From NCBI RefSeq assembly GCF_003030345.1, contig NZ_CP028158.1, positions 3,782,001-3,846,000 on the forward strand: 64,000 bases of DNA. The letters are read 5' to 3'. Origin of the DNA: Plantactinospora sp. BC1 (GTDB lineage Bacteria > Actinomycetota > Actinomycetes > Mycobacteriales > Micromonosporaceae). The notes beneath the pieces were generated by a model. That model made no database searches. It had not been told where the DNA came from and saw only the letters and a list, made by a program, of their open reading frames with translations. The translations under genes and the position numbers were made by a program. The first letter of the stretch is position 1. Every line of letters starts with the position of its first letter. Shown piece after piece: positions 58,392 to 64,000 of this stretch.

Positions 58392-58616
58392 ATGTCACCG
58401 GAGACCACCGACCTGCTCGGCCGGGCCCCCTGGCGCAAGAGCAGCCACAGCGGAGACCAGGGCGCCTGCGTCGAGTTCGCCCTGCTCGCCGGGGCCGCCG
58501 ACGACGTCGTGGCCGTCCGCGACTCCAAGGACACCACCGGGCCGGTGCTGATTTTCGCGCCGGCCGCCTGGACCGCATTCACCACCGCGCTGCCCGCCTC
58601 CCCCGTTCTCCCCTGA
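58392..58616 (+). CDS. DUF397 domain protein
   Basis: 74 residues with the family pattern: WRKSSHSGDQGACVEFA near the N-terminus, then VVAVRDSKDTTGPVLIFAPAAW. DUF397 proteins pair with DUF5753 HTH regulators in actinobacteria and are thought to modulate them. One base separates it from the HTH stop; the ATG is at 58392. Confidence 0.93.
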   Translation: MSPETTDLLGRAPWRKSSHSGDQGACVEFALLAGAADDVVAVRDSKDTTGPVLIFAPAAWTAFTTALPASPVLP

Positions 58617-58986
58617 CAGTGAGGATGTAGGAGCGGGTCACCCGGCCGGTCTGACTCAGCCTCTGACTGACCTTGGGTGTCTTCTAGGGGATTCGTCGGT
58701 CTGCCCGGGTGACCCGTTCCTGCACTCACCGACCGGGCGCTCGATCACCGCCCACTGCCGATCAGTCAGCGACGACTCGTACGCCGGTTTACAAACACAA
58801 CGACACAGAAGTGATCTTCGTCCAAAGAGTCAGCAAAGGTCACGCCGAGGTATCACAACACTCTCTAAGAGGGGACCAGATGTCCCGCCAGGGAAACCGG
58901 CGGTGGTGGCCGAGCGGGGTGGAGAGCGGGCCGGCAGCGCCGGTGCAAGGAGGCAGCCGGGGCCTACTGATCACCGCCCGCACGAC
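58617..58986. other. Intergenic region between DUF397 and VanZ (370 nt)
   Basis: Contains the 17-bp inverted repeat, then a relatively AT-rich stretch (about 58785-58870). An ATG at 58879 (plus) has AGAGGGG upstream and an open frame that runs antisense into the VanZ gene; I do not call it. The VanZ gene ends at 58987. Confidence 0.5.
58629..58721. repeat. 17-bp inverted repeat with 59-nt spacer after DUF397
   Basis: 58629-58645 and 58705-58721 are inverted repeats with a single G-T mismatch in 17. The spacer holds shorter CTGACT/GGTCTG repeats. It could fold as a large RNA hairpin ending the DUF397 transcript or mark a recombination or protein-binding site. Confidence 0.7.
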
Positions 58987-59807: not shown

Positions 59808-59978
59808 ATGGAACCTTTGGCCGAGACTGCTCACTTCGACCTTGTCGATCTGACCGGCGTGAGCCTGGCCAAGCTCAACGAGTTGCCGCAGACCGTCTTC
59901 GTCGGCTCGTTGCGGAGGATCCTCGAAGACATCGAAGAGCCCCACGACGTGGTGGCCGGGTGGAACTCGGCCATGTAG
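59808..59978 (+). CDS. fxsA: FxSxx-COOH type RiPP precursor peptide
   Basis: 56-residue peptide (MEPLAETAHFDLVDLTGVSL... at the N-terminus) ending W-N-S-A-M at 52-56. FxSxx-COOH precursors carry an aromatic-x-Ser-x-x C-terminus; the usual Phe is Trp here. The leader contains VSLAKLNELPQTVF, resembling conserved leader helices. ATG with an AGGGTGGG purine run upstream. It lies 3 nt before the radical SAM maturase, which is expected to link the aromatic residue and a nearby side chain into a cyclophane. Confidence 0.85.
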   Translation: MEPLAETAHFDLVDLTGVSLAKLNELPQTVFVGSLRRILEDIEEPHDVVAGWNSAM

Positions 59979-59981
59979 GTC

Positions 59982-61223
59982 ATGCCGCCAGTGCCTCTTC
60001 CACCACCCGCCACGACCCGGCCGCCGGAGCCCGCCCGCTCCGCGCCGCCGGGCGCCGGCGCGGAGGGGCGAGGGGTGCCGTTCCGCGAGTACGTCGTCAA
60101 ACTGCGGTCGCGCTGCAACCTCGCCTGCGACTACTGCTACATGTACGAACTGGCCGACCAGAGCGCCCGCAGCGCACCGGCGGTCATGAACAGCGCGGTT
60201 TTCGACCGCGTGTGCGAGCGGATCGCCGAACATGCCGACACGCACGGGCTGGCCGAGGTGCGGGTGGTGTTCCACGGCGGTGAGCCGATGCTCGCCGGCT
60301 CCGCACTGCTGGCCCAGTGGGCCGGCCGGCTGCGCGAGGCGTTGCCGGAGCGGATGGCCGCGCAGATCGCGGTGCAGACCAACGGCGTGCTGCTGACCGG
60401 CGCCGACCTGGATCGGCTCGCCGCCGCCGGGGTACGCGTCGGGGTGAGCCTGGACGGCGGTCGGGTCGCCAACGACCGGCACCGGCGCTACCGCAGCGGG
60501 CGCAGCAGCTTCCCGGCGGCGGACCGGGCCCTGCGGATGTTGCGCGCCCGGCCGGAGCTCTTCGCCGGCATCCTCTGCGTGGTGGACGTCGAGAACGACC
60601 CGGTGCACACCTACGAGGCACTCCTCGAATACGACCCGCCGATGGTGGACTTCCTGCTGCCGCACGCGCACTGGGACCGTCCGCCGCCCGGCTGGCGGCC
60701 CGGCACCACCCGCTACGGTGACTGGCTGGTCGCGGTCTTCGACCGGCAGTACGGCGCACCCGTGCAGGAGACCAGGGTGCGGCTCTTCGAGGAGCTGATC
60801 CGCCTCTCGTTCGGTGCACCCAGCCGCACGGAGACGGTGGGGCTGAGCCCCGTCGCCACCGTGGTGTTCAATGTGGACGGCGCATACGAGCAGGTCGACA
60901 CGTTACGGTCGACGTACCCGGGCGCCGTCGGTACCGATCTGACCGTCTTCGCCGATCCGCTGGACGCCGCGATGCACCACCCCCAGGTACGCGCGCGCCA
61001 GGCCGGAGCGGCGGGACTTGCCGACGCCTGCCGGCGGTGCGCCGTGCACCTGGTGTGCGGCGGGGGCTACTACCCTCACCGCTACCGTGCGGCGTCCGGC
61101 TTCGCCAACCCCTCGGTGTACTGCTCGGACCTGGAGCGACTCATCCGCCACATCGTGGCGCGGCTCCGCAGTGATCTGACCGGCCTGAGGGATGGTACGA
61201 ATGCACACGCATCACCTGGCTGA
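59982..61223 (+). CDS. fxsB: FxsB-family radical SAM/SPASM peptide maturase
   Basis: 413 residues. The radical SAM cluster is CNLACDYC (Cys45, 49, 52), with GGEP in VFHGGEPML. The SPASM C-terminal cysteines include CRRCAVHLVCGGGYYP and NPSVYC (about 350-391). The family forms cyclophane crosslinks in FxSxx precursors. The Pro-rich N-terminus (1-30) is variable. It starts 3 nt after fxsA and overlaps the next gene by 23 nt. Confidence 0.93.
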   Translation: MPPVPLPPPATTRPPEPARSAPPGAGAEGRGVPFREYVVKLRSRCNLACDYCYMYELADQSARSAPAVMNSAVFDRVCERIAEHADTHGLAEVRVVFHGGEPMLAGSALLAQWAGRLREALPERMAAQIAVQTNGVLLTGADLDRLAAAGVRVGVSLDGGRVANDRHRRYRSGRSSFPAADRALRMLRARPELFAGILCVVDVENDPVHTYEALLEYDPPMVDFLLPHAHWDRPPPGWRPGTTRYGDWLVAVFDRQYGAPVQETRVRLFEELIRLSFGAPSRTETVGLSPVATVVFNVDGAYEQVDTLRSTYPGAVGTDLTVFADPLDAAMHHPQVRARQAGAAGLADACRRCAVHLVCGGGYYPHRYRAASGFANPSVYCSDLERLIRHIVARLRSDLTGLRDGTNAHASPG

Positions 61224-63036
61224 CGCCGAACTCGACCAACTGGGCCGTGGTCTGGGCGACCCGGCGCTCATCGACCGGCTGCGCGCCGGCCAGCTGAGCA
61301 AGCGGATGCTGCACCTGCGGCTGCTGCTGGACGGCCTGCCGGAGCAGAGCCGCGTACACGAGCACTTCGCGCTCCTGGTCGCGGCGACCCGGCGCCGGCC
61401 CGAACTCGGATCGGCCACCCTCGCCCACCCGCACCTCGGTACCTGGCTGGCCGAACAGCTGCGGCGGCTGCACGGTGGCCGGGACGGCGCCCCCGCCCCG
61501 GCGGACGTCGACTATCTCGGCTGCGTGGCGGCGGACGCGGCGGCCCGGGCCGGCCTCGACTTCGAACTGACCCTCACCCCGCGCGACGGCGCACTCGTGC
61601 TGCCGGGCCGGGGCATGGCCCTGGTCGACCCGTCGGCACCGGCCGTCGTCCGCCACCGCGACGGCGTCCTGCGCATCGGTACGGTGACCGTCCCCGCCGA
61701 ACCGGAGCGGGACACCGAGAACTGGTTGGCGGTGCGGACGCTGCGGGCCGAGAGCGAGGGACTGGGCATAACGCTGCTCCTGGACGACCTGGACCCGTTC
61801 CGGGACCGACACCAGCTCGGCGCGGCCACCCGGCTCGACGAGAAGGAGGTACGGCACTGGCAGACCGCGCTCACCTCGGCCTGGTCGATGCTCACCCGGC
61901 AGCACCGCCAGTACGCCGAAGGGATCGCCGCCGGCCTGACCACGGTGGTGCCGCTGGACGCGCCGCACAGCACTGCCGGGGTGAACGTGACCAGCCTGGA
62001 GGCCTTCGGCGCCACCGCGATGACCCGACCCGCCGACGGGATCGCCCTCGGGCTCGGCCTGGTACACGAGTTCCAGCACGCGAAGCTCGGTGCCGTACTC
62101 GACGTCGTCGAGCTGTACCAGCGGGACGAGCGGCCCCGCTACTACGCACCCTGGCGCGACGACCCGCGCCCGCTCGGCGCCGTCCTCCAGGGCGTGTACG
62201 CGTTCCTCGCGGTCACCGACTTCTGGCGGGTCCAGCGCACCGTCCTCACCGGCGGCCCGGCCCAGCTCGCGGAGGCCGAGTTCGTCCGCTGGCGGGACCG
62301 GGTCTGGCGGACCCACGACACCCTGGTCAGGGCGGACCGGTTCACCGCACCCGGGCGGCGGTTCCTCGCGGCGATGCGAGCGGTGCAGGAGCTGTGGTGG
62401 AGCGAGCCGACCTCGCCGCAGGCGCAGCAGTTGGCCCGCGACGCCGCCGCCGATCACTGGGTGGGCTGGCGGCTGCGCAACCGCCGGCCGGATCGGGCCG
62501 CCGTGCTCCGCCTCGCCGACCTCTTCGCCGACGGGGAGCCGTGCCCGGCCCGCTGGGTGGAGGTGCGCGTCGAACCCCGGGCGGAGCGGCTGCTCACCTT
62601 CAGCGCCCGGCTGGACCTGATCCGGCTCGGGCTGACCGACCCGGCGCGGTTCGCCGAACTCTGTCGGGAGCCGGACCCGGGCTTCTCCGTCGGCGACCTC
62701 GCGCTGGTCGGCGGCGACCTGGCGGCGGCCCGGGACGCGTACCGGGCGCAGATCGCGGTCGGCGAGGACCCGCTGGACGCATGGATCGGACTGACCCTGG
62801 CGTGCCAGCGCGACGACCGGTACCCGGTGCGGCTCGACTCCCCCGAACTCTGTCTCGCGGTGCACACGGAACTGCGCCGCCGGGGCCGCGAGGCGGACCC
62901 GCTGGAGCTGGCCCGCTGGCTGGAGCCGGTGACCTGCGACGAGGACGGCGCGGGCGAGCGGACCTGGGGCCCGCTCGTCCAGCCACGCCGTACGCCGGTC
63001 GCCGCTACGTCGGAGGCGGCTCCAGATCGCAGTTGA
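61201..63036 (+). CDS. HExxH-motif peptide modification enzyme
   Basis: 611 residues from ATG 61201 (ATG 61192 is possible but has its purine run adjacent). The metal motif is HEFQH at 289-293. The family (HEXXH motif domain) accompanies FxSxx-type and other RiPP precursors; some members have been described as alpha-ketoglutarate-dependent peptide beta-hydroxylases. Its C-terminal half (about 320-590) is helical. It overlaps fxsB by 23 nt and the convergent TPR gene by 32 nt. The residue it modifies is unknown. Confidence 0.88.
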   Translation: MHTHHLADAELDQLGRGLGDPALIDRLRAGQLSKRMLHLRLLLDGLPEQSRVHEHFALLVAATRRRPELGSATLAHPHLGTWLAEQLRRLHGGRDGAPAPADVDYLGCVAADAAARAGLDFELTLTPRDGALVLPGRGMALVDPSAPAVVRHRDGVLRIGTVTVPAEPERDTENWLAVRTLRAESEGLGITLLLDDLDPFRDRHQLGAATRLDEKEVRHWQTALTSAWSMLTRQHRQYAEGIAAGLTTVVPLDAPHSTAGVNVTSLEAFGATAMTRPADGIALGLGLVHEFQHAKLGAVLDVVELYQRDERPRYYAPWRDDPRPLGAVLQGVYAFLAVTDFWRVQRTVLTGGPAQLAEAEFVRWRDRVWRTHDTLVRADRFTAPGRRFLAAMRAVQELWWSEPTSPQAQQLARDAAADHWVGWRLRNRRPDRAAVLRLADLFADGEPCPARWVEVRVEPRAERLLTFSARLDLIRLGLTDPARFAELCREPDPGFSVGDLALVGGDLAAARDAYRAQIAVGEDPLDAWIGLTLACQRDDRYPVRLDSPELCLAVHTELRRRGREADPLELARWLEPVTCDEDGAGERTWGPLVQPRRTPVAATSEAAPDRS

Positions 63037-64000
63037 GCCGGTTCTCCTCGGCCAGCGCGACGGTGTTGGGATGAGTGTCGCCGAGGACCCGACGAAACGC
63101 GGGTAGCAGCGAGCGGCGCAGCTCCTGTGCCGCCGACCGGTCGCCGTCGGCGGTGAGGCTGGTCGCCAGGTTGTTGGCGACCGCCAACGTGTCGGGATGG
63201 TCCGGGCCGAGAAGTTGCCGGAGCCGTTCGTAGTCCTGCTCGTCGGTGCGGCGGGCCGCCGCGTAGTCGCCCTGGTGGTAGAGGCAGTTGCCGAGGTTGA
63301 TCCGGGCGGCCAGCGTGTACGGGTGGTTCGCCCCGGCGACCGCGGTGAACCGCTGCACCATGTCCTTGTTGAGCTCGTACGCCCCGGCCGTCTCCCCGGT
63401 CTTGCGGAGGAAGATCGCGACGTTGCTCCCGTACGCGAGCGTGAAGAGGTGGTTGTCGCCCATGATCCGCCGGTACCACTCGTAGACCGGCTGGGCGCGG
63501 CGCAGCGCCGCCTCGTCGTTACCGAGGGCGGAGTCGTCACAGGCGAGGTTCATCGCGCAGGCCTGCACGTCGGGATGGTCGGGGCCCTGGAAGAGTCGCC
63601 GCGACCGGGTCAGCGTCTCGGCGCTCAGGGCGTGTGCCTGCTCGAACTCCCCGATCTTCCGCAGTGTCACGGCGTAGTTCTTGATCGCCCGCAGCGTCTC
63701 CGGGTGCTCCTCGCCGAGCACCTCCCGGTGCGCCTCCACGGTCTGCTCCAGCACCCGGCGCGATTCGCGCAGCTCGCCGGTGTCGCGCAGGTCGCGCCCG
63801 TAGTTGCCGGCGCTGTAGAGCGTGTTGGGGTGCCGGTCGCCGAGTACGGCTCGGCGCCGGTTGAAGGTGTCCTCGTCGAGTTGCAGGGCCCGGCGCAGGT
63901 CGCCGACGAGTCGCAGCGACACGGCGAGGTTGTGTGCCGCGTTCAACGCCAGCGGGTTGAACTCGCCGAAGACGTCCCGGGCCAACGGCTCGGTCTGCTC
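63005..64000 (-). CDS. FxSxx system TPR protein, C-terminal part
   Basis: The open frame crosses the right edge of the window, so about 330 C-terminal residues are seen. They are nine or so degenerate TPR units of about 42 residues with the HPxTL pattern (DRHPNTLYSAGNYGRDL, EEHPETLRAIKNYAVTLRK, GPDHPDTLAVANNLA). This resembles the large FxSxx-COOH system TPR/NB-ARC proteins; any NTPase part would lie outside. It converges on the HExxH gene with a 32-nt antisense overlap. Confidence 0.82.
   Translation of the reverse strand, partial: EQTEPLARDVFGEFNPLALNAAHNLAVSLRLVGDLRRALQLDEDTFNRRRAVLGDRHPNTLYSAGNYGRDLRDTGELRESRRVLEQTVEAHREVLGEEHPETLRAIKNYAVTLRKIGEFEQAHALSAETLTRSRRLFQGPDHPDVQACAMNLACDDSALGNDEAALRRAQPVYEWYRRIMGDNHLFTLAYGSNVAIFLRKTGETAGAYELNKDMVQRFTAVAGANHPYTLAARINLGNCLYHQGDYAAARRTDEQDYERLRQLLGPDHPDTLAVANNLATSLTADGDRSAAQELRRSLLPAFRRVLGDTHPNTVALAEENRLNCDLEPPPT

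What the first reader, a model, noticed from the sequence alone, without database searches (positions are those of the whole stretch)
59808..64000. Compact FxSxx-type RiPP locus: precursor, radical SAM/SPASM maturase, HExxH enzyme and TPR protein
Seen: a 56-codon precursor 3 nt before a CxxxCxxC radical SAM/SPASM gene, which overlaps an HEFQH enzyme gene; a TPR gene converges. Known: FxSxx-COOH precursors, FxsB-family cyclophane-forming enzymes and HExxH peptide-modifying proteins co-occur in actinobacteria, with TPR proteins of the same system. Inferred: the product is a cyclophane-bearing and additionally hydroxylated peptide. No protease or transporter is seen in the window, so the mature product and its function are open; genes right of 64000 matter.
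Basis: partly seen in the sequence, partly recalled or inferred. Interest (0 to 1): 0.85.

Follow-up and report, generated by a model that had tools for sequence, protein, structure and literature searches.

The report
Modified peptide tied to immune-like sensor
This is a complete, already catalogued type of bacterial gene set (FxSxx) that makes a tiny chemically cross-linked peptide beside an immune-receptor-like protein; here the peptide's key ring amino acid is tryptophan instead of the usual phenylalanine, which predicts a cross-link not on the list of known ones that I read.

Summary
Beyond 64000 the TPR gene proves to be a ~1350-aa ParA-like/TIR/NB-ARC/TPR STAND protein, next to FxsC, a TIR-like protein. 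This is the stand-alone form of the peptide-processing conflict systems of PMC7159879. No recurrent transporter group includes it. An NB-ARC domain lies within 10 kb in 113 of 124 relatives with enough flank, 22 of 26 where no HExxH gene was found and 10 of 10 where no radical SAM gene was found; asking also for TPRs gives 110. The HExxH protein models as an alpha-ketoglutarate oxygenase (SjiH, ChlH). The departure: the core is W-N-S-A-M, not F-x-S-x-x. Trp is shared by one supported clade of 10 species and predicts a Trp-Ser cyclophane absent from the list I read. Four of five sister F-core loci carry a VMAP-group gene instead of the TIR module. Most likely role, inferred: the cyclised peptide gates the STAND/TIR protein.

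The parts
59808..59978 (+). fxsA precursor, 56 aa, ending ...VVAGWNSAM-COOH
   Evidence: TIGR04268 31.5 bits, cut-off 28; a Met at the same distance from the core in the nine W-core relatives printed
59961..59975 (+). core pentapeptide W52-N53-S54-A55-M56; predicted cross-link Trp52 ring to Ser54 C-beta
   Evidence: WNSA[M/I] in 9 species and WNAAIG in a tenth, one clade; last 8 residues 97% identical against 75% for the preceding 37, mean of 36 pairs from 9 rows, L107 left out. The bond itself is inferred
59982..61223 (+). fxsB, radical SAM/SPASM cyclophane synthase, 413 aa; C45-x3-C49-x2-C52 and SPASM-region Cys350, 353, 359, 381
   Evidence: TIGR04269 456.9 bits; ChlB 9gm3 E 4.4e-76; these Cys conserved in 94-98 of 98 rows
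61192..63036 (+). fxsH, aKG-HExxH peptide beta-hydroxylase, 614 aa
   Evidence: TIGR04267 164 bits; model pLDDT 91.6; Foldseek SjiH 22ob E 5.6e-24, ChlH 8s5f E 7.8e-9
62065..62079 (+). HEFQH motif (residues 292-296)
   Evidence: HExxH intact in 85 of 87 loci with a separate gene (the other 2 are gaps at contig ends) and in 19 of 20 of the fused type
62149..62172 (+). PWRDDPRP motif (residues 320-327), shared with ChlH (SPWREDLRP)
   Evidence: R322, R326, P327 invariant in 49 rows; ChlH alignment
63005..64000 (-). fxsT, C-terminal TPR part; the gene runs on to about window-equivalent 67060 (KGGVGR ParA-like, TIR, NB-ARC, TPR). Upstream of it, fxsC (TIR-like) at window-equivalent 67069-68352, outside the window
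   Evidence: L009 11005-15075 and 15069-16352 (window = L009 + 52000): NF040586 1007 bits over its full 830 positions, NF047398 139 bits, NF040588 166 bits, TIGR04276 113 bits, all over cut-off; TIR_2, NB-ARC, TPR in Pfam

Best explanation
A complete stand-alone FxSxx system of five genes in a Micromonosporaceae genome. FxsA is translated; FxsB (radical SAM/SPASM) joins the Trp52 indole carbon to the Ser54 C-beta, making a three-residue W-N-S cyclophane; FxsH (Fe/alpha-ketoglutarate) then beta-hydroxylates a residue in or next to the ring. The modified C-terminus is the ligand or safety-catch of FxsT, a NLR-like STAND ATPase (ParA-like, TIR, NB-ARC, TPR), probably read by its TPR domain, and FxsT acts with or through FxsC, whose TIR domain keeps the catalytic-type glutamate. 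Likely outcome: a threshold response that spends NAD or makes a nucleotide signal in infected or stressed cells. Shown by computation: gene content, family membership, enzyme fold and motifs, conserved linkage, Trp core. Inferred: the bond, the hydroxylated residue, peptide binding by FxsT, the effector step, and a defence rather than developmental role.
For: All five genes pass curated models. The FxsH model matches only SjiH and ChlH chains at E <= 1e-3. NB-ARC (over 100 bits) within 10 kb in 113 of 124 loci: 81 of 88 with both enzymes, 22 of 26 with no FxsH and 10 of 10 with no FxsB in the fetched stretch; with a stricter NB-ARC score and TPRs on the same strand, 79 of 88, 21 of 26 and 10 of 10, 110 in all. 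The own genome shows 22 NB-ARC matches in 8.33 Mb, so about 5% would be expected by chance within 10 kb either side. Only one NF040586 match over cut-off in the genome, and it is this one. FxsC Glu102 invariant in 5 rows and conserved in at least 90% of 41. Four of five sister F-core loci carry a VMAP-group gene instead, with MoxR-like AAA, caspase or trypsin domains in some: the conflict modules of PMC7159879. MscB of the FxsB family makes C4(Phe)-Cbeta(Ser) bonds (PMC11002830).
Against: No binding, activity or phenotype data. 11 of 124 loci (14 by the stricter rule) have no NB-ARC partner within 10 kb, among them W-core L107. In 3 of the 26 'no FxsH' loci (L146, L148, L152) a FxsH gene lies just beyond the fetched stretch, so they do not show independence from it. 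The FxsT TIR does not conserve the glutamate across 24 rows, so only FxsC could be catalytic. A recurrent MFS gene in 36 of 124 relatives allows export in those lineages. PADLOC gives only pVip for FxsB (E 6.2e-11, partial) and PDC-M28B for the ParA-like part of FxsT (E 2.9e-23), nothing for FxsH or FxsC. Neither Asp nor His, the residues ChlH hydroxylates (PMC12636437), is in WNSAM.
Confidence: 0.58

Rival explanations
1. A secreted RiPP natural product (antibiotic, signal or metallophore) whose exporter and leader protease lie elsewhere; the STAND gene is immunity or a chance neighbour.
For: Same enzyme classes as triceptides. MFS genes recur in 36 of 124 relatives, often at a similar place. 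Leader proteases are unlinked in a subset of RiPP clusters (PMC12636437).
Against: The STAND linkage is kept in loci where no FxsH or no FxsB was found. Neither the recurrent MFS group nor the ABC-ATPase group includes any of the ten W-core clade loci; not every neighbour of those loci was annotated.
Confidence: 0.2
2. FxsH is a zincin-like metallopeptidase that cuts FxsA and frees the C-terminal peptide, as PMC7159879 (section 24) proposed for this gene class.
For: HExxH motif; zincin-like fold reported for the ChlH type; PflC, an aKG-HExxH enzyme, cuts backbones oxidatively, and hydrolytically without leader (PMC12636437).
Against: Best fold matches are the oxygenases SjiH and ChlH; no peptidase at E <= 1e-3. 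The PWRxDPRP motif shared with ChlH is nearly invariant. A mixed oxidative-cleavage activity remains possible.
Confidence: 0.15
3. The system regulates the host's own development or stress response and is not a defence.
For: Very widespread: 196 of 300 sampled family genomes have FxsB over cut-off; the named hosts are actinobacteria.
Against: Patchy by subtype: none of the six other same-genus genomes has this subtype (best FxsH match there 38% identity, none in one); swaps of effector modules between close relatives fit conflict systems better.
Confidence: 0.2

Closest known systems
FxSxx-COOH system (NCBIfam TIGR04268, TIGR04269, TIGR04267, NF040586, NF040588/TIGR04276)
   Same: All components present and over curated cut-offs
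   Different: Trp instead of Phe in the core; FxsH is a separate gene; FxsT and FxsC converge on the enzyme genes, whereas in the 20 loci of the fused FxsBH type examined (19 in one open frame, L130 split) they follow on the same strand
Stand-alone actinobacterial peptide-processing systems with AP-ATPase and inactive MinD/ParA domain (PMC7159879)
   Same: NB-ARC with TPR, ParA-like domain with deviant KGGxGR loop, TIR
   Different: That paper calls the HExxH protein a metallopeptidase; the structure search here favours an oxygenase
ChlBH / SjiH radical SAM and aKG-HExxH enzymes (PDB 9gm3, 8s5f, 22ob)
   Same: FxsB like ChlB, FxsH like SjiH and ChlH in sequence and fold
   Different: Extra helical C-terminal region in FxsH; substrate W-N-S
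Triceptides (XncB, OscB, MscB and others; PMC11002830)
   Same: Aromatic-x-x motif and SPASM radical SAM enzyme
   Different: Trp-Ser is not among the cross-links in the passages I read; the closest are C4(Phe)-Ser and C6/C7(Trp)-Asn/Arg/Asp

Membership tests
FxSxx-COOH RiPP system | Precursor over the TIGR04268 cut-off | tested here: met
   31.5 bits, cut-off 28; 6 of 6 W-clade relatives tested also pass, of 9 available
FxSxx-COOH RiPP system | FxsB over the TIGR04269 cut-off, next to the precursor | tested here: met
   456.9 bits, cut-off 370; 3 nt apart
FxSxx-COOH RiPP system | FxSxx_TPR protein and FxsC | tested here: met
   1007, 166 and 113 bits, all over cut-off
FxSxx-COOH RiPP system | Phe at position -5, which gives the family its name | tested here: not met
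   Trp. The curated model does not require the literal motif: WNSAM and FVNDPE precursors pass it. Hence 'variant', not 'non-member'
aKG-HExxH peptide beta-hydroxylase | HExxH, PWRxDxRP and the ChlH/SjiH fold | tested here: met
aKG-HExxH peptide beta-hydroxylase | Fe(II)/aKG-dependent hydroxylation of a cyclophane peptide | not testable with these tools
   needs enzymology
Triceptide (three-residue cyclophane) | C-C bond from an aromatic ring to C-beta of residue i+2 | not testable with these tools
   only motif and enzyme family seen
Stand-alone peptide-processing conflict system (PMC7159879) | AP-ATPase with TPR and an inactive MinD/ParA-like domain beside the peptide genes | tested here: met
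   that the ParA-like domain is inactive is read from its KGGxGR loop only
VMAP ternary (vWA-MoxR) system | VMAP gene in the locus | tested here: not met
   no member of the VMAP group in the 20 kb of L009; the rest of the genome was not searched for it

The most novel reading that the evidence does not exclude
A ribosomal peptide bearing a Trp-Ser cyclophane (and probably a beta-hydroxyl) is the built-in ligand or safety-catch of a bacterial NLR-like TIR/NB-ARC receptor: an immune system whose activation state is set by a post-translationally made macrocycle, with the same maturation cassette re-plugged between TIR-STAND and VMAP/caspase effectors.
Probability: 0.3. Interest if true: 0.88.

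Novelty: new variant of a known kind. Interest (0 to 1): 0.5.

Why it matters
Bacterial relatives of NLR immune receptors are known, but a receptor that depends on a cross-linked ribosomal peptide would be a new way of arming one. What FxSxx peptides do is open in the text I could search (4 papers hold the string, one relevant). This is a compact set of five genes; named close relatives (Micromonospora endophytica DSM 45430, M. andamanensis NBRC 109075) carry the same layout and identical last 8 residues, and enzymes of solved structure exist for comparison, so the question is testable. The Trp core also predicts a new cross-link type.

Tried and rejected
Tried without result: own-genome second copy of the cassette (only one aKG-HExxH gene found); PADLOC models (pVip on FxsB and PDC-M28B on the FxsT N-terminus only); promoter and terminator scan upstream of fxsA (0 found); a tree test of whether absence of FxsH goes with Asn at the third core position (11 N and 2 S without FxsH, of which L146, L148 and L152 have one beyond the fetched stretch; 63 S, 14 N and 8 A with it; only 5 independent pairs, about 2 informative, not significant). 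Considered and rejected: that the XRE/DUF397 pair, VanZ or SOD belong to the system. The XRE/DUF397 block matches in all 6 other same-genus genomes searched, none of which has this subtype; VanZ matches over its length in 4 and SOD in 2 of the 6, at other places.

Limits of the census: 133 non-redundant loci came from 141 (8 duplicates removed). 80 came from one FxsB search of named genomes (best 80 of 159); 60 were chosen by me from the match lists, not at random. 9 of the 133 had under 8 kb downstream and were left out of the 124 (6 of them have NB-ARC). One search counted NB-ARC hits over 100 bits whether or not TPRs follow; three of its 113 (L029, L063, L078) fail the stricter rule. Core letters were assigned by hand for 98 loci; 86 are F and 12 W. 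The rest, among them L024, L067, L078, L086 and L096, had no clear core, an odd one or no precursor found and were dropped; L107 was left out of the identity means.

Papers: PMC7159879, section 24 and passages; PMC12636437, part 1 of 6 and passages; PMC11002830, passages; all others only as search listings. The two triceptide source papers were looked up by DOI and are not held. The statement that Trp-Ser is not on record rests on those passages and on searches only.

Recalled, not from a call: the meaning of the TIR glutamate as catalytic, and the naming of NLR-like proteins.

Full report
Observation. The precursor has 56 codons, lies 3 nt before the radical SAM gene, and ends in G-W-N-S-A-M. 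The radical SAM gene overlaps the HExxH gene by 32 nt, and the latter overlaps the convergent TPR gene by 32 nt. Curated NCBIfam models name all four as parts of the FxSxx-COOH system, each over its cut-off.

Surroundings. The window is G000:C1:3782001-3846000 of an 8.33 Mb single-contig genome. Its family also holds Micromonospora, Dactylosporangium and Asanoa genomes, recognised because fetched loci were identical in FxsB and FxsH to named ones, so Micromonosporaceae is inferred. To the right (L009) the TPR gene continues into a protein of about 1350 aa: ParA-like KGGVGR domain, TIR, NB-ARC, TPR, matching NF040586 over its full 830 positions with 1007 bits. Just upstream of it lies fxsC, a TIR-like gene. 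Then come SOD and an MFS gene. Left neighbours (XRE/DUF5753, DUF397, VanZ) are not part of the unit: the XRE/DUF397 block matches in 6 of 6 other same-genus genomes, whose best FxsH match is only 38% identical.

Enzymes. FxsB matches ChlB (9gm3, E 4.4e-76) and keeps the CxxxCxxC and SPASM-region cysteines found in 94-98 of 98 rows. FxsH matches SjiH (22nu/22ob) and ChlH (8s5f) in sequence (the name SjiH comes). An AlphaFold2 model from 49 sequences has mean pLDDT 91.6, and Foldseek finds only SjiH and ChlH chains, five in all, at E <= 1e-3. HExxH is intact in 85 of 87 loci with a separate gene (the other two are gaps) and in 19 of 20 of the fused type. PWRxDPRP, which ChlH shares, is nearly invariant. 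So FxsH is most likely an alpha-ketoglutarate oxygenase; the older label of metallopeptidase (PMC7159879) is less likely, though PflC shows that such enzymes can also cleave (PMC12636437).

The Trp core. Among 98 loci with an assigned core, 86 have Phe and 12 Trp. Ten of the 12, including the window, form one clade (SH-aLRT 96, quick tree); the other two are separate gains. The ten are WNSAM or WNSAI in nine and WNAAIG in one. In the nine, the last 8 residues are 97% identical and the preceding 37 are 75% identical on average. FxsB positions N297 and Y302 are fixed in the ten; position 297 is Asp in all five sister rows and acidic in 83 of 86 F-core rows, position 302 is Leu, Ile or Val in the sister rows. 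The two independent Trp gains do not share these residues, so this is a lead only. The known FxsB-family reaction in the review is C4(Phe) to Cbeta(Ser) by MscB; Trp-Ser is not in its list (PMC11002830). W-N-S therefore predicts a Trp-Ser triceptide.

The constant partner. In 124 non-redundant loci with at least 8 kb downstream, an NB-ARC hit lies within 10 kb in 113: 81 of 88 with both enzymes, 22 of 26 with FxsB but no FxsH found, 10 of 10 with FxsH but no FxsB found. Asking for a higher NB-ARC score and TPRs on the same strand leaves 110: 79 of 88, 21 of 26 and 10 of 10. In 3 of the 26 a FxsH gene lies beyond the fetched stretch. With 22 NB-ARC matches in 8.33 Mb of the own genome, chance would give about 5%. 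Other recurrent neighbours are a nSTAND1-TPR protein (41 of 124), an MFS transporter (36), a VMAP-group protein (29), an ABC ATPase (18; named from its sequence, not by a family search) and a MoxR-like AAA protein (11). Nine of the ten W-core loci have the ParA-TIR-NB-ARC-TPR protein with FxsC; L107 has neither in the 19.5 kb fetched. Of the five sister F-core loci, L021, L112, L116 and L117 have an NB-ARC-TPR protein without ParA-TIR and a VMAP-group gene; the fifth, L053, also lacks ParA-TIR but its stretch ends too early to tell about VMAP. Pfam confirmed VMAP-C in L021, L116 and L117 (and in L045) and found a caspase domain in L112, a trypsin domain in L117 and a MoxR-like AAA protein in L116. 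The peptide cassette is thus re-plugged between two conflict-type modules. F-core loci with FxsC-type and ParA genes also exist (L097, L146-L148, L151-L154, and the 20 of the fused type), so Trp and this module are not strictly tied.

Mechanism. Best reading: peptide made, cross-linked and hydroxylated, then used inside the cell as ligand or safety-catch of FxsT, with FxsC as TIR effector; its glutamate is conserved in at least 90% of 41 rows, that of the FxsT TIR is not (24 rows). PMC7159879 already suggested a peptide toxin or signal coupled to such ATPases; what is added here is the persistence of the linkage in loci where one of the enzymes was not found, the oxygenase assignment by model and fold search, and the Trp variant. 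The binding and effector steps are inference.

Verdict. Known system, complete, with a clade-specific Trp core that was not noted: a new variant of a known kind. Interest 0.5 as it stands, higher if the peptide proves to control the STAND protein.

Noticed in passing
window 58610-58740: A 131-bp hairpin-forming repeat, 10 matches listed at 99-100% identity in the own genome, itself included, right after the DUF397 gene; a second repeated stretch adjoins it (about 58740-58873). Conservation of the left flank with same-genus genomes ends here. Probably a MITE or REP-like element.
   Followed up: partly
L028, L042, L059, L060, L066, L072, L079, L091: Loci without a found HExxH gene mostly have Asn, not Ser, at the third core position (11 N, 2 S, three of the N having the gene further off; against 14 N, 63 S, 8 A with it). 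The tree test has too few independent events to judge.
   Followed up: partly
L119-L121, L125, L160-L165: HExxH-only loci with precursors ending in ...GYNPQRLD or ...GPPGRVD and NB-ARC-TPR but no FxsB within the fetched stretch; probably the RxD type of PMC7159879.
   Followed up: no
L107 (G112): A W-core cassette (WNAAIG) with FxsB and FxsH but no NB-ARC-TPR or FxsC in the 19.5 kb fetched: an orphan worth a look.
   Followed up: no
L028-L098, nSTAND1 and MFS groups: In many Nocardiopsis and Actinomadura type loci the precursor lies beyond the NB-ARC gene, about 5 kb from FxsB, near a nSTAND1-TPR gene (41 of 124 loci) and an MFS gene (36 of 124).
   Followed up: partly
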